64,000 nucleotides of DNA from Kangiella sp. Its GTDB lineage: Bacteria > Pseudomonadota > Gammaproteobacteria > Enterobacterales > Kangiellaceae. The stretch is taken from contig JANQSG010000004.1 in the NCBI GenBank assembly GCA_028284185.1, positions 35,248-99,247 on the forward strand. The letters run 5' to 3'. Position 1 is the first letter of the stretch. The number at the start of each line of letters is the position of its first letter. This document shows, piece by piece, positions 14,142 through 64,000 of the stretch. The notes beneath the pieces are model-generated. The model was not told the DNA's origin, searched no databases, and saw only the letters and a program-made list of their open reading frames with translations. A program made the translations under genes and the position numbers.

Positions 14142-16520
14142 GTGCCTTTGTCTAAACCAAAAAAAACATCTTTCGATCCGCAGGCTGAGTTAGAAGCTCA
14201 ACGTTATGTCAATCCGATTGCCAGTCGTCAATATATTTTGGAAGTACTAAAAAATTCTGGTGAGCCTTTGTCTTTTGATGAACTTAGTGCCAAGTTGGAA
14301 ATTTTGGAGTCAGATGATAAACGTGCCTTGCATAAACGCCTGAATGCGATGGAGCGTGACGGACAATTGATTTGTAACCGTAAGGGTGATTATTGTTTAG
14401 TTGATGCGACAGATTTAGTTCGTGGCACAATTATTGCTCATCGCGATGGCTATGGTTATCTGGAGTTGGAACAGGGTGGTCAGGACTGGTATTTATCTCC
14501 CAGAGAAATGCACAATGTATTTCATGGCGATAAAGTCTTAGCGCGGGTTAAAAAAATTGATCGGCGTGGTCGTACCGAAGGTGATATTGTTGAGATTCTC
14601 GATGGTTCAACGACTCACTTGGTTGGGCGCTTATTTGAAGAAAACGGTTTATATTTTGTTTCATCAGAGGATTCAAGAATCCAGCATGATCTGATTGTTG
14701 ATTTAAATACTGGTCTTAAGGCGGAAATTGGTCAGGTGGTGGTGGCTGTCATTACGCAAAGGCCACATAAAAACCGTCATGCGCGTGGTGAAATTACCGA
14801 AGTTTTGGGCGACTATTTATCTGCTGGAATGGAAATCGAAATTGCCATTCGCAGTCATGGCATTCCGCATGAATGGCCAGAAGAAGTTAATCAACAAGTG
14901 ACAGATCTACCTGTAGAAATTACTGAGAATGACTGGAAGTTTGAGTCTGGACAAAGGGTTGATTTGCGTGATTTGCCATTGGTAACCATTGATGGTGAAG
15001 ATGCCCAAGATTTTGATGATGCGGTCTATTGCCGGAAGAATACTAATGGTGGTTGGCGATTATGGGTCGCAATTGCCGATGTGAGTCATTATGTACAGCC
15101 GGATACGGCACTGGATGATGAAGCGATCAAGCGTGGTAATTCGGTTTATTTTCCTAACTTTGTAGTACCTATGTTGCCTGAGTTGTTATCCAATGGCTTA
15201 TGTTCGTTAAATCCTAAGGTGGATCGTCTGTGCATGGTGGCAGAAATGGATTTGGATAAACAGGGCCATGTTGTCGGTTCTAAATTTTATCCCGCCGTAA
15301 TGCACTCTCATGCACGTTTTACTTACACTAAAGTCTGGGCCATCCTAAACAAAGATGAAGATAATCATCATGAACTACGGAAAGAATATACGGAGCTGGT
15401 TCCCGATCTGGAAAGCCTGTATGAGCTGTTTAAGGCGCGTTTAGCACTTAAAACGAAACGCGGTGCTATTGAGTTTGAAACTACCGAAACCCAAATTTTA
15501 TTTACCGAAGATCGCAAAATAGAAAAGATTGTAGGGCGAACTCGTAATGATGCTCATCGCATTATTGAAGAGTGCATGATTTGTGCCAATGTGGCGACGG
15601 CGGAATTTATCTTAAAAAGTAAAGTTCCAGGTATTTATCGTGTTCATGAAGGGCCGTCGGAAGAACGCTTGGAAAAATTTCGTGCCTTTCTGGGTGAGCT
15701 CGGACTATTTTTATTTGGCGGGCAAAATCCTGAACCGAAACATTATCGGGAATTGCATACTGCTATTGCTGAACGTCCGGATTATGATTTAATTCAATCC
15801 ATGATGCTGCGCTCTATGATGCAGGCAGTTTATAGTCCGGAAAATGAAGGCCATTTTGGTTTGGCTTTTGAGGCTTATACCCATTTTACCTCGCCAATTC
15901 GGCGCTATCCTGATTTATTAGTACATCGGATTATTAAACAGATATTGGCTGAGAAAGAGCAGCTGGTGGGTACCGATTCAGGGCAGCTCTATACGGAAGC
16001 GGAATTAGTGCACTACGCTGAACATTCTTCTATGACTGAGCGACGAGCCGATAAAGCTACGCGAGAAGTAATTGATTGGTTGAAGTGCGAATATATGCTG
16101 ACGCGAGTTGGGGAAGAATATTGGGGAACCATTTCTACCATCACCAGTTTCGGTTTATTCGTGCAACTGGATGAGCTGCATGTGGATGGTTTGATCCATA
16201 TTAGTGCATTGGATGGCGATTATTACCACTTTGATGCAGCAAAAATGCGTTTGATTGGTGAACGTAGTCGGCAAAGTTTTAGAGTGGGCGATCGTTGCTT
16301 AATTAAAGTCAGCCGAGTGGATTTGGAAGATAAAAAAATCGATTTTGATTTAGTAAAGCGAGAATCAGTTAAACGTGAGGAAGTGAAGGGATCGGAAAGA
16401 AGAAAGCTTTATGCTAAAGCTAAACGTAGTGGTTCTATTTCTAAAGGTGATACTAAAGGAAAATATGGCAAAAATACTAAATCTAAACGTGGTAAAAGCG
16501 GTAAGCGGAAAAGAAAATAG
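14142..16520 (+). CDS. rnr: Ribonuclease R
   Basis: RNB motif DGEDAQDFDDAVYC, HFTSPIRRYPDLLVHR, C-terminal S1 domain and basic tail. Confidence 0.96.
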   Translation: MPLSKPKKTSFDPQAELEAQRYVNPIASRQYILEVLKNSGEPLSFDELSAKLEILESDDKRALHKRLNAMERDGQLICNRKGDYCLVDATDLVRGTIIAHRDGYGYLELEQGGQDWYLSPREMHNVFHGDKVLARVKKIDRRGRTEGDIVEILDGSTTHLVGRLFEENGLYFVSSEDSRIQHDLIVDLNTGLKAEIGQVVVAVITQRPHKNRHARGEITEVLGDYLSAGMEIEIAIRSHGIPHEWPEEVNQQVTDLPVEITENDWKFESGQRVDLRDLPLVTIDGEDAQDFDDAVYCRKNTNGGWRLWVAIADVSHYVQPDTALDDEAIKRGNSVYFPNFVVPMLPELLSNGLCSLNPKVDRLCMVAEMDLDKQGHVVGSKFYPAVMHSHARFTYTKVWAILNKDEDNHHELRKEYTELVPDLESLYELFKARLALKTKRGAIEFETTETQILFTEDRKIEKIVGRTRNDAHRIIEECMICANVATAEFILKSKVPGIYRVHEGPSEERLEKFRAFLGELGLFLFGGQNPEPKHYRELHTAIAERPDYDLIQSMMLRSMMQAVYSPENEGHFGLAFEAYTHFTSPIRRYPDLLVHRIIKQILAEKEQLVGTDSGQLYTEAELVHYAEHSSMTERRADKATREVIDWLKCEYMLTRVGEEYWGTISTITSFGLFVQLDELHVDGLIHISALDGDYYHFDAAKMRLIGERSRQSFRVGDRCLIKVSRVDLEDKKIDFDLVKRESVKREEVKGSERRKLYAKAKRSGSISKGDTKGKYGKNTKSKRGKSGKRKRK

Positions 16521-16529
16521 AATATCGAT

Positions 16530-17267
16530 ATGTCAGAAATAGTATTTGGAATTCATGCGGTTGAGGTTTTACTGAAAAGAAATAGTGGAGCTATACAACA
16601 GATTTATGTGCAAAATAATCGTCGTGATCAGCGTTTGCACAAGCTTATTAAACTGGCGCAAAATAAAGCTGTTAAAGTTGTGCAGAAAAGTCGAGAAGAA
16701 TTGGATGAGCTTACTGAGCAGCGCCATCAAGGGGTAATTGCACAGTGCGGTTCTTTAAAGAAAAGCAGTTACCACGAAAAGCAAATTCCGGAACTTTTGC
16801 AGAAAATTGATGGTGATCCTTTTATATTAATTCTCGACGGTGTGACTGATCCGCATAATCTGGGTGCTTGTCTAAGAAGTGCCGATGCGGCTGGTGTACA
16901 TATGGTGATAGCACCAAAAGATAATGCCACTGGTATAACCGATGTCACACGGAAAGTAGCTTGTGGGGCTGCTGAAGCTATTCCTTTTATTATGGTGACT
17001 AATCTTGTGCGCACTATGAAGTTGTTGCAGGAACAGGGTATTTGGTTTTATGGCACTGCTGGTGAGGCTCAGCATGATATTTATCAGTCTGATCTAGCAG
17101 GTCCTATTGCAATTGTAATGGGGGCCGAAGGAGACGGTATGCGTAGACTGACAAAAGAAACTTGTGACCACTTGATAAAAATCCCTATGGCAGGGGAGGT
17201 TTCTAGCCTGAATGTTTCCGTTGCAACTGGCGTGACTTTGTTTGAAGTAGTTAGGCAAAGAAGTTGA
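16530..17267 (+). CDS. rlmB: 23S rRNA (guanosine(2251)-2'-O)-methyltransferase RlmB
   Basis: FGIHAVEVLLKRN, LDGVTDPHNLGACLRSADAAGVH, SpoU family; follows rnr. Confidence 0.95.
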   Translation: MSEIVFGIHAVEVLLKRNSGAIQQIYVQNNRRDQRLHKLIKLAQNKAVKVVQKSREELDELTEQRHQGVIAQCGSLKKSSYHEKQIPELLQKIDGDPFILILDGVTDPHNLGACLRSADAAGVHMVIAPKDNATGITDVTRKVACGAAEAIPFIMVTNLVRTMKLLQEQGIWFYGTAGEAQHDIYQSDLAGPIAIVMGAEGDGMRRLTKETCDHLIKIPMAGEVSSLNVSVATGVTLFEVVRQRS

Positions 17268-17320
17268 ATTTTATTTAATAAAAAATAACCGAAATAAAAT
17301 ATTAATAATGGAGAAGAAAA

Positions 17321-17986
17321 ATGAATAAAATACTAATTGGTTTGTTAGCTTTATCTGTAGCTGGAAATATCTATTTTTTGGTTAAACCTTCAGAAATTAT
17401 AGTAAAGAAATCTGAGCCTGAAAAAAAGGTAGTAACTGAAATTGAAACTATTAAAGTTCAAGATAAATCAACATTAAATAAGCTTGATTTAGCTAATGAG
17501 AAAATAGCTGGCCTTGAAAAGGAGTTGTTAAAATTGAGGGCAGAACTAGATTTAATTAAAGATCGTGAAGCTTTAGATAAGCTTAGTAAACAAATAGATC
17601 AAGAGTTACTTGAAAGTTTAGATACTAAAGTCAGTAAACAAGCAGCGGCAGAGGCTTTAGCTAAGAGGACGAATATGGTAAAAGAGCTTTTTGAAAAAGA
17701 GTCTGTCAATGAATCTTGGGCATATCAAACACAGGATGCTATCACTAACACTATTTATGCACATGGAGATACCAGTCTTTATGAAATTAAAGAGTTAGTT
17801 TGCAAATCGACGGTTTGTAAAATGGAATTAAAGCCTTTTTCTAATTCAAAGGGTGTTGAGATGATGGTAAGTATAAATGCTTCAATGGCTTTTAATGAAA
17901 ATGAACATTTAAGAGAATTTAAAAGAAATTTCCACTTCGATACATATAAAGCTTCTGGAGTATTGGAAGTGTATATCTCCAAATAA
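17321..17986 (+). CDS. Hypothetical membrane-anchored coiled-coil protein
   Basis: N-terminal TM segment followed by E/K/L-rich coiled-coil; no family recognised. Confidence 0.6.
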   Translation: MNKILIGLLALSVAGNIYFLVKPSEIIVKKSEPEKKVVTEIETIKVQDKSTLNKLDLANEKIAGLEKELLKLRAELDLIKDREALDKLSKQIDQELLESLDTKVSKQAAAEALAKRTNMVKELFEKESVNESWAYQTQDAITNTIYAHGDTSLYEIKELVCKSTVCKMELKPFSNSKGVEMMVSINASMAFNENEHLREFKRNFHFDTYKASGVLEVYISK

Positions 17987-18070
17987 TTTTTATAAACAAG
18001 TTTCATTAAGATAGAAGTTGTAGCAAAATCAGACTTAAGCATCATTTGCCACAAGCACTTGCTTTGGTTG

Positions 18071-18095
18071 TCCACGAAGGCGGGAATCTATTTTA
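18071..18095. repeat. Fragment of dispersed GAAGGCGGGAATC repeat
   Basis: tccacGAAGGCGGGAATCTattt shares GAAGGCGGGAATCT with the element at 57270-57339. Confidence 0.5.
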
Positions 18096-18123
18096 TCCAG
18101 TCATACAAGTGTTAAAATGGATT

Positions 18124-19116
18124 TTACAGCAAATCCACTTCAACCGTTTCTGGCCAAATACTAAATTGCACTTGACCAATATGTGACTTTTGCAGGAAAA
18201 ACATGGCGAGACGAGATTGTCCAATACCACCACCAATGGTTTGTGGTAATTTTCCTGCCATTAATTGTTGGTGCCATTTGTAATCCAGTCGATGTTCACA
18301 ATCACGAATTTGCAATTGCTTTTTCATTACTTCAGGGCTTACTCGAATGCCCATAGAGGAAAGTTCGAAAGCATCCTCTAAAACAGGGCTCCAAACCAGG
18401 ATATCACCGTTCAAACCAGCATAGCCTGCTTCAGTTTCACTGCTCCAGTCATCGTAATCTGGTGCGCGGCCATCATGAATAGTGCCATCGATGAGTTCGC
18501 CGCCAATGCCGATTAAAAATACGGAACCATATTTTTTACAAGCCTGATATTCACGCTCTTTTGGTGAAAGCGTGGGGTATTGCTGTAATAATTCTTCAGT
18601 ATGAATAAAATGGATGGTTTCTGATAGTAATTGTTCTCGATCTAATTGGATCGCTAATTGTTGATCAATAGATTTTAAAGCGGAGTAAATTTGCTTAACA
18701 GTATCCTTTAAATAATCCAAACCCCGGTCTTTTACTTCGATAACCTTTTCCCAATCCCATTGATCGACACAAATTGAATGGCGTTCGCTTAATACCTCCT
18801 CATCAGGTCGTAAAGCACGCATTTGAGCGACAATACCTTTGCCAGCTTGAAAGTCCGTGCGGGCTAGTAATTGACGTTTCCATTTGGCCAGGGAATGAAC
18901 TACTTCTACCGACTTGGATAAAGCCTTGCTGGAAACGCTGACGGCTTTTTCAGTACCGTTCAGATCATCTTGAGTACCATCGTCTTGTAGAGTCAATATC
19001 GGCGCTTGAACTTCTACCAAGTCCAATTTTTGGGACAGTTCGCTTAAAAAGTCAGTTTTAAGTGCCTGTATCAGCTTTTGGTCTTCAATAAATGAGGTAT
19101 GTGCTAGTTTTTTCAT
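18124..19116 (-). CDS. asnA: Aspartate--ammonia ligase
   Basis: LVEVQAPILTLQDDGTQDDLNGTEKAVSV, VVHSLAKWKRQ, MRALRPDEEVLSERHSICVDQWDWEKV. Confidence 0.95.
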   Translation of the reverse strand: MKKLAHTSFIEDQKLIQALKTDFLSELSQKLDLVEVQAPILTLQDDGTQDDLNGTEKAVSVSSKALSKSVEVVHSLAKWKRQLLARTDFQAGKGIVAQMRALRPDEEVLSERHSICVDQWDWEKVIEVKDRGLDYLKDTVKQIYSALKSIDQQLAIQLDREQLLSETIHFIHTEELLQQYPTLSPKEREYQACKKYGSVFLIGIGGELIDGTIHDGRAPDYDDWSSETEAGYAGLNGDILVWSPVLEDAFELSSMGIRVSPEVMKKQLQIRDCEHRLDYKWHQQLMAGKLPQTIGGGIGQSRLAMFFLQKSHIGQVQFSIWPETVEVDLL

Positions 19117-61342: not shown

Positions 61343-63073
61343 ATGTTTAAAGGTCGCAAATCAGGTTTAGGCTGCCTGACTCTTTTTGGTGGTGTTTTTT
61401 TAGTTGCCGGGGTGGGGATTTTTTTATGGCAAATAAAAGCGGTATTTAAGTCCTGGCAGGCTTCCGACTGGCTACCCGTTCAGGCAACTTTGACTCATGT
61501 AGAGCAAACGGTTTCGCATGGTGACAATTCAACTACCTATGCTGTTAAGGGCAGTTACCAATATCAAGTGGCAGGCAAGACTTATCAATCAAATCAACTT
61601 AATTTCCACAATGTTAGCGATAATATTGGTTCTTACCAGCAGGACTTTTATCGTCAATTAAGCTTTAAACGCAATAACAGCCAAACCATCACGGCTTATT
61701 ATGATCCGGATAATCCTTCCGAAGCAGTGATTGATCGCAGTGTGCGCTGGGGCTTGATTGGTTTTGGCTCCATATTTTTACTGGTCTTTGGTGGTGCTGG
61801 CGCGGGTATTATTTTTGCTGGCTTTTGGGGAGCCCGAAAACTTAAAGAAGAAGATGGCTTTAAGACTCAATTTTCAGATGAACCCTGGAAATGGAAAAAA
61901 GAATGGCAACAAACTTATTTTTCGCCAAGAACAAAAGCCAGTTACGTCGCTGTCGGAATTTTTGCCTTGTTCTGGAATCTTATTTCGATTCCGATCGCAG
62001 CCTTTGCTCTGCCGCAGGTTATTGAAAAAGGGCAATATATAGGGTTGCTGGTTTTACTTTTCCCATTGGTAGGGATTGGGATGATTAGCTGGACTCTGCT
62101 GTTATATTTGCGGCATAAAAAATTTGGTCAGACTAAACTTTATTTAGAGGATGACAGAATAAAAATAGGTGCTATTAATAAAGGCTCTGTCGAGTTAACA
62201 CCACAACAACTTACTAATTCCGATGCGATAATTAGATTAGCTTCGATTCATAGATACGAGTCAGGCAGTGGCGATGATAAAAGCACCAAAGAAAAAATAC
62301 TTTGGGAAGATACTTATCGCGTCAGTTTAAATGCTTCAACGATAAATTTTTCTTTCAAAGTTCCGAAAGAGCTTCAAGAAACGGATGAGTCCAATAGTCG
62401 TTCTGGTTATTTATGGCGTTTGAATATTGACAGTAAGCAGTCTGGCCCGGATCTTAAACTGGATTTTGATATTCCTGGTTTTCGTCTGACTCAAGCCGAA
62501 TTATTGCAACAAGAAGAATTGGCTGCCGATTTGTTTAATGATAGCTACAATAAAACTCCATATTATAAACAAACGGATTCTGGTGATTGGACTAAATTAG
62601 GTTTGATCCAAAAGTATAGTAATGCAGGTAGCGAATACTTCTTCCCAAGAATGAATGGTTTTACCTGGTGGTCTGGCGGTATTGCAGGTCTGATTTTCGT
62701 CATTATTGGTTTTGTTGCTTATTTTTATGGCGCACCGATCATATTTCCTATTGTTTTTGGATTATTGGGTGGATTGATCGGCATACTTTGCTTTAGAGCA
62801 GCCTTGTTTAAAAGTCGTATCTTTATCGACTCCGGCAATCTCTATTACCAAACGGGCCACTTATGGTTTGGTAAAACTGTTGTTATTCCTCGCGACTCTA
62901 TTCGTAACTTCGACACCGTATCCCATGCCAGTTCCGATACCACCAAATTCTATAACCTTCTGGTAAAGACCCAGCAAGGTCAAACTCATACCATTGCCAA
63001 AAACCTCACCGTTAAAGGCGATATCAATGCCTTTATCGACAAGCTGAAGGCCGATTTGGGGATTTCTATCTGA
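61343..63073 (+). CDS. DUF3592-like membrane protein
   Basis: N-terminal TM; WLPVQATLTHVEQTVSHGDNSTTYAVKGSYQYQVAGKTYQSNQ...ITAYYDPDNPSEAVIDRS is typical of DUF3592. Confidence 0.7.
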   Translation: MFKGRKSGLGCLTLFGGVFLVAGVGIFLWQIKAVFKSWQASDWLPVQATLTHVEQTVSHGDNSTTYAVKGSYQYQVAGKTYQSNQLNFHNVSDNIGSYQQDFYRQLSFKRNNSQTITAYYDPDNPSEAVIDRSVRWGLIGFGSIFLLVFGGAGAGIIFAGFWGARKLKEEDGFKTQFSDEPWKWKKEWQQTYFSPRTKASYVAVGIFALFWNLISIPIAAFALPQVIEKGQYIGLLVLLFPLVGIGMISWTLLLYLRHKKFGQTKLYLEDDRIKIGAINKGSVELTPQQLTNSDAIIRLASIHRYESGSGDDKSTKEKILWEDTYRVSLNASTINFSFKVPKELQETDESNSRSGYLWRLNIDSKQSGPDLKLDFDIPGFRLTQAELLQQEELAADLFNDSYNKTPYYKQTDSGDWTKLGLIQKYSNAGSEYFFPRMNGFTWWSGGIAGLIFVIIGFVAYFYGAPIIFPIVFGLLGGLIGILCFRAALFKSRIFIDSGNLYYQTGHLWFGKTVVIPRDSIRNFDTVSHASSDTTKFYNLLVKTQQGQTHTIAKNLTVKGDINAFIDKLKADLGISI

Positions 63074-63079
63074 TAAACT
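63062..63079 (+). repeat. Degenerate terminal CRISPR half-repeat overlapping the CDS stop
   Basis: ATTTC-TATCTGATAAACT matches the last 19 nt of the repeat with one deletion; exactly 30 nt before the first full repeat. Confidence 0.85.
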
Positions 63080-63109
63080 CTACTATATAGAGGGGATCAA
63101 AGAAGTTAT

Positions 63110-64000
63110 GTTGCGGTTTAAGCACAATTTCCTATCTGATAAACTAAAAGGCTGTAAGGAGATATGACGATAGTTGTTGCGGTTTAAGCACAATTTCCTA
63201 TCTGATAAACTACATTCAATATAAAATGAGTGCCGGTTCCTGTTGCGGTTTAAGCACAATTTCCTATCTGATAAACTACTCAAGTTTTGCTATGTGCAGG
63301 TCAGCAAGTTGCGGTTTAAGCACAATTTCCTATCTGATAAACTAAGGTTTGTAGTGCAATGACTACTGCTTTTGTTGCGGTTTAAGCACAATTTCCTATC
63401 TGATAAACTGCTCGACAATCATAGTCAAATAGTGATGGAGTTGCGGTTTAAGCACAATTTCCTATCTGATAAACTACTTTCCTTTGGCCGAACTTCATGA
63501 TTTAAGTTGCGGTTTAAGCACAATTTCCTATCTGATAAACTAACGATTTCAGGCACTAGCCGTTTAAAGCGGTTGCGGTTTAAGCACAATTTCCTATCTG
63601 ATAAACTACTAAACCCTTGATCACAAATAACAAACCTGTTGCGGTTTAAGCACAATTTCCTATCTGATAAACTTTACTAATGCGGCAGCAGCGCCTTTAA
63701 TTAGTTGCGGTTTAAGCACAATTTCCTATCTGATAAACTCAGAGCTTCTTTCGTCCTCGCCCGACCCCTGTTGCGGTTTAAGCACAATTTCCTATCTGAT
63801 AAACTTGATAAAAGCAGAAATGGTGCTAGAGGCTAGTTGCGGTTTAAGCACAATTTCCTATCTGATAAACTGAGGCTGCCGCCGTGCATCCCGAAACAAT
63901 GGTTGCGGTTTAAGCACAATTTCCTATCTGATAAACTAACTTTATTATGGACAATTTAAGATCAGGTGTTGCGGTTTAAGCACAATTTCCTATCTGATAA
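63110..64000 (+). CRISPR. CRISPR array, 13 full + 1 window-truncated identical 36-nt repeats, 13 spacers of 30 nt (plus one 30-nt spacer after the degenerate half-repeat); probably type II-C
   Basis: GTTGCGGTTTAAGCACAATTTCCTATCTGATAAACT at 63110 + 66n up to 63968; all intervening sequences are 30 nt and unrelated. Confidence 0.98.

What the first reader, a model, noticed from the sequence alone, without database searches (positions are those of the whole stretch)
63062..64000. Type II-C-like CRISPR array with a novel-looking repeat and strict 36/30 periodicity, cas genes outside the window
Seen directly: 14 repeats (last cut by the window edge), apparently identical, with spacers of exactly 30 nt. 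Established knowledge: 36-nt repeats with 30-nt spacers are characteristic of type II (also some V and VI-B). Type II-C repeats (Neisseria/Pasteurella GTTGTAGCTCCC...CATTTCGCAGTGCTACAAT) begin GTTG and end in an extended -10 box. This repeat shares GTTG at the start, a (C)AATTTC-like middle and TG-A-TAAACT at the end. Inference: a II-C Cas9 system lies to the right of base 64000. Its repeat differs enough from the Neisseria/Pasteurella type (about 15/36 identical) that its Cas9/tracrRNA pair may be divergent.
Basis: partly seen in the sequence, partly recalled or inferred. Interest (0 to 1): 0.75.

Follow-up and report, generated by a model that had tools for sequence, protein, structure and literature searches.

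The report
Ordinary Cas9 CRISPR array, Kangiella

Summary
In detail: 13 identical 36-nt repeats plus a 14th cut after 33 nt by the contig end, with 30-nt spacers at a strict 66-nt period.

The window ends where contig C10 ends. The array continues on contig C30: the ends overlap by 96 nt, including a unique spacer, and an array-free relative shows the same gene order around the site. Joined, the array has 25 intact repeats, one half repeat and 25 spacers. Next to it lie cas2, cas1 and a 1052-aa cas9. A tracrRNA gene precedes cas9 on the opposite strand; its anti-repeat pairs with the repeat at -36.6 kcal/mol (shuffled mean -13.6). Cas4 is absent, Csn2 not seen. The array runs opposite to the cas operon. 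This is type II-C.

The repeat is not novel: a second Kangiella genome has it letter for letter (Cas9 84% identical), and related repeats accompany related Cas9s in other gammaproteobacteria. The oldest repeat keeps only its promoter half, an extreme case of a published II-C trend. No convincing target was found for the spacers searched, so the PAM is unknown. Interest is low.

The parts
63110..64000 (+). CRISPR array in the presumed transcribed orientation: 13 intact 36-nt repeats and a 14th cut after 33 nt by the contig end; 30-nt spacers, period 66
63062..63079 (+). half-decayed oldest ('extra') repeat: the 3' half with the -10-like TGATAAACT is kept, the 5' handle half is replaced by the coding sequence of the upstream gene
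   Evidence: role in limiting extraneous crRNA inferred from PMC12080349
63080..63109 (+). oldest spacer, 30 nt
63137..63145 (+). extended -10-like TGATAAACT at the 3' end of repeat 1, present in every unit; the last six bases match TANA(C/A)T in 10 of 11 distinct repeats compared
   Evidence: promoter function inferred by analogy with C. jejuni (PMC3656092)
63938..63967 (+). spacer AACTTTATTATGGACAATTTAAGATCAGGT, shared with the end of contig C30; joins the two contigs (96-nt overlap)
61343..63073 (+). DUF3592 protein gene (576 aa); its stop codon TGA (63071-63073) lies inside the decayed repeat. Left border of the CRISPR-cas insertion, not part of the system

Best explanation
This is a complete type II-C CRISPR-Cas9 locus of a Kangiella species, split by an assembly break inside its array. 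Cas1-Cas2 add new spacers at the cas2 end (inferred). Each repeat carries its own -10-like promoter at its 3' end and starts a short transcript of spacer plus next repeat (inferred from C. jejuni). The repeat pairs with a tracrRNA transcribed divergently from upstream of cas9 (computed), is presumably trimmed by host RNase III, and guides the 1052-aa Cas9 to cut invading DNA (inferred from the family). The oldest repeat has lost its tracrRNA-binding handle but keeps the promoter half, so it can start the first crRNA without giving a guide of its own (inferred).
For: Contig overlap of 96 nt with a shared unique spacer, and synteny ychF, tRNA-Met, tRNA-Ser, DUF3592 without an array in a relative. 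cas9 (TIGR01865, 605 bits), type II cas1 (TIGR03639, 251 bits) and cas2. One Cas1 and one Cas9 in the genome, no Cas4. Anti-repeat with a TTGACA-N17-TACTGT promoter-like stretch and a terminator hairpin; repeat:tracrRNA -36.6 kcal/mol against -13.6 mean and -24.5 best of 200 shuffles. Residues D8, E515, H599, N622, H740 and D743 invariant in 14 Cas9s. The same layout (cas9-cas1-cas2-array, anti-repeat upstream of cas9) in most related loci. The array runs opposite to cas, the rule for II-C (PMC6737040, PMC3936727).
Against: No convincing protospacer was found, so interference is unproven and the PAM unknown. Transcription and processing are not observed. Subtype was assigned by gene content and orientation, not by a Cas9 tree with named II-A/B/C references. 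The Csn2 search had no positive control.
Confidence: 0.96

Rival explanations
1. The window's array is a separate, orphan array and the C30 array belongs to another locus with the same repeat.
For: Two contigs; identical repeats alone do not prove adjacency.
Against: The contig ends share a unique spacer plus both flanking repeats over 96 nt. The flanks of C10 and C30 are neighbours in G024, a relative without the array. The decayed repeat lies at the C10 end and intact repeats at the cas2 end, as in one array.
Confidence: 0.02
2. A type VI-B (Cas13b) or type V array, which can also have 36-nt repeats and 30-nt spacers.
For: Repeat and spacer length alone (own knowledge).
Against: cas9-cas1-cas2 sits beside the array, with an anti-repeat complementary to this repeat. 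No other effector lies between cas2 and tRNA-Met.
Confidence: 0.01
3. Type II-A or II-B instead of II-C.
For: Cas9 is shared by all type II subtypes.
Against: cas9 hits TIGR01865 and no II-B model was among its hits; it falls far below the Cas9d cut-off, 142.8 against 375 bits. No csn2-like or cas4 ORF in the locus, no Cas4 in the genome. Array opposite to cas, unlike II-A.
Confidence: 0.02

Closest known systems
II-C locus of Kangiella sp. isolate Bin_2 (NZ_JABURJ010000052.1, locus L012)
   Same: Identical 36-nt repeat, 30-nt spacers, Cas9 84%, Cas1 94% and Cas2 98% identical, near-identical anti-repeat and terminator, half-decayed oldest repeat.
   Different: None of the 25 spacers compared resembles one here; it sits at another genomic site; its oldest repeat keeps 22 nt and is followed by a run of C.
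Gammaproteobacterial II-C loci G195, G387, G224, G391, G293, G070 (L095-L097, L099, L100, L104)
   Same: cas9-cas1-cas2-array, 36-37-nt repeats starting GTT(G/C) and mostly ending TANACT, anti-repeat on the minus strand upstream of cas9, TAACAAG after the anti-repeat.
   Different: Cas9 only 35-37% identical; repeats differ at many positions.
Campylobacter jejuni type II-C (PMC3656092, PMC12080349)
   Different: C. jejuni has a terminator upstream of its array; here the array abuts a co-directional gene and half of the oldest repeat is lost. Promoter activity was shown there, not here.
Neisseria/Pasteurella type II-C
   Same: Three-gene operon, array opposite to cas (PMC3936727); repeat begins GTTG (own knowledge).
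   Different: Repeat sequence; the Cas9 is distant from all Cas9 chains of the PDB, best 218 bits for 1052 aa.

Membership tests
CRISPR-Cas type II | Cas9 with RuvC and HNH domains | tested here: met
   TIGR01865 605 bits, PF18541, PF13395; motif residues invariant
CRISPR-Cas type II | tracrRNA with an anti-repeat complementary to the repeat | tested here: met
   duplex -36.6 kcal/mol against -13.6 shuffled; promoter-like and terminator sequences present; expression not testable
Subtype II-C | cas9, cas1 and cas2 only; no cas4 (II-B) | tested here: met
   locus ORFs and genome search, with working controls for Cas4
Subtype II-C | no csn2 (II-A) | tested here: inconclusive
   no ORF for it in the locus; genome search negative but its control rang nowhere
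Subtype II-C | array transcribed opposite to the cas operon | tested here: met
   orientation inferred from the anti-repeat strand, the decayed distal repeat and the -10-like end; rule from PMC6737040 and PMC3936727; transcription itself not observed
Subtype II-C | promoter inside each repeat | tested here: inconclusive
   TGATAAACT at the repeat end, last six bases conserved among relatives; activity needs RNA data
Subtype II-C | Cas9 falls in the II-C branch of a reference tree | not tested
   tree of 14 relatives only, no named II-A/B references

The most novel reading that the evidence does not exclude
The Kangiella Cas9 pair is a divergent II-C branch with its own tracrRNA specificity and a PAM unlike those characterised. 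Its arrays end in a half repeat selected to keep the promoter and lose the tracrRNA-binding handle, here fused to the stop codon of a host gene.
Probability: 0.3. Interest if true: 0.35.

Novelty: new member of a known kind. Interest (0 to 1): 0.17.

Why it matters
It adds a complete, small (1052-aa) Cas9 with a predicted dual RNA from a genus with little CRISPR literature in the library searched. The half-repeat ends of both Kangiella arrays are clear natural examples of the proposal that II-C arrays spoil the handle of their oldest repeat while keeping its promoter. Otherwise it is an ordinary adaptive immune locus.

Tried and rejected
Protospacers: 25 spacers of this array and 25 of the sister array against phages, plasmids and 20 Kangiella genomes gave only chance-level matches; the sister array's oldest spacer was not searched. 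Eight exact 20-nt scans of IMG/VR (the 3' ends of seven spacers from here and one from the sister) gave two hits, in which the other ten spacer bases match at only 3 of 10 and 1 of 10. Two such hits are about what chance allows for a collection of that size (my estimate; its total size was not given), so no PAM was derived. Rfam found nothing in the window. A Csn2 search was uninformative for lack of a control.

Full report
What is there. The window ends at the end of contig C10 of its genome (window = C10:35248-99247; contig length 99247). At 63110-64000 lie 13 identical 36-nt repeats and a 14th cut after 33 nt, with 30-nt spacers and a period of exactly 66. Before them is a remnant repeat, 63062-63079, which aligns to the 3' half of the repeat with one base lost, then a normal 30-nt spacer (63080-63109). 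The stop codon of the upstream DUF3592 gene (TGA, 63071-63073) lies within the remnant. Homologues of that protein match it to within a few residues of its end, so only the last residues and the stop come from the repeat.

The other half. The only other copies of the repeat in the genome are on contig C30, at its end. The ends of C10 and C30 overlap by 96 nt, including the unique spacer AACTTTATTATGGACAATTTAAGATCAGGT. Independent support: in G024, a relative without the array, ychF, tRNA-Met, tRNA-Ser and the DUF3592 gene are neighbours; in this genome ychF and tRNA-Met lie beside cas9 on C30 and the DUF3592 gene beside the array on C10. The locus therefore sits between tRNA-Met and DUF3592. 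The tRNA-Ser of that site is found elsewhere in this genome. Joined, the array has 25 intact repeats, one remnant and 25 spacers. The genus is Kangiella: G026, in the same genus as the window's genome, has the contig of Kangiella sp. Bin_2.

The genes. On C30 (locus L010) follow cas9 (14384-17542, 1052 aa), cas1 (17545-18462), cas2 (18455-18784), then 62 bp with a terminator-like hairpin, then the array. Families: TIGR01865 605 bits, TIGR03639 251 bits, TIGR01573 60 bits, all above cut-off. One Cas1 and one Cas9 exist in the genome; no Cas4; the Csn2 search is not informative. D8, E515, H599, N622, H740 and D743 are invariant among 14 Cas9s; that they are catalytic is inferred from their motifs.

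The guide RNAs. Upstream of cas9, on the opposite strand, lies an anti-repeat preceded by TTGACA-N17-TACTGT and followed by a short hairpin and a terminator, GCAGGC-TACG-GCCTGC-TTTT. The repeat pairs with it at -36.6 kcal/mol, with 17 consecutive pairs in the upper stem and 7 in the lower; 200 shuffled repeats give -13.6 on average and -24.5 at best. The repeat ends in TGATAAACT, which resembles an extended -10. In C. jejuni each repeat was shown to carry such a promoter (PMC3656092). In II-C the array runs opposite to the cas genes and spacers are added at the last repeat (PMC6737040, PMC3936727, PMC12080349), which fits this locus: the repeat next to cas2 is intact and the far one decayed. 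Promoter activity here is inferred, not shown.

The oldest repeat. In 357 II-C systems 60% of the oldest repeats are mutated, mostly in the first 15 nt, which interact with Cas9 after processing, while the promoter part has to stay (PMC12080349). Here the first 17 nt are gone altogether and replaced by coding sequence; in the sister Kangiella the first 14 nt are replaced, 13 of them by a run of G (C on the other strand). Both keep the promoter half. Several other arrays compared carry one to four changes in the far repeat, while the repeat next to cas2 matches the consensus (the cas-side row for L105 is confused by its own anti-repeat).

Relatives. Among 20 Kangiella genomes only two carry this Cas9, and one more has a different Cas9 (33-34% identical) with a different repeat. 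The sister locus (L012) has the identical repeat but none of the same spacers and lies at another site. In 369 sampled genomes of the class, 30 have a Cas9 match, this one included; the closest are about 35-37% identical over the whole length and most have the same layout and related repeats. A tree places the two Kangiella Cas9s together on a long branch (100/100), with weak support for the third Kangiella Cas9 beside them (84/90).

What could not be settled. No protospacer was found for the spacers searched, so neither PAM nor targets are known.

Verdict. The system is an ordinary, complete type II-C CRISPR-Cas9 locus; the repeat is not new, and the Cas9 is a new member of a known kind.

Noticed in passing
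window 63062-63079: The decayed oldest repeat supplies the stop codon of the upstream DUF3592 gene.
   Followed up: yes
L012 12182-12216: In the sister Kangiella array the oldest repeat keeps 22 nt and is followed by a run of 13 C; it could be a variable homopolymer tract or an assembly effect.
   Followed up: no
L010 14240-14310 and the same place in L012: The tracrRNA tail AAUUUCC could pair with GGAAAUU of its own anti-repeat, so the free tracrRNA might fold on itself before meeting a crRNA; the minimum-energy fold of the free RNA does not show this pairing.
   Followed up: partly
L106 (G022): A third Kangiella genome has a different II-C Cas9 (about 33% identical) with repeat GTTGCGGATTGAGCACGTTTCCTAAGTTGCTATAAT, ending in a perfect TATAAT.
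   Followed up: partly
G000:C3:867-966 and L019 1362-1452: The tRNA-Ser next to tRNA-Met in the relative G024 lies on another contig in this genome, so the site was rearranged as well as filled.
   Followed up: partly
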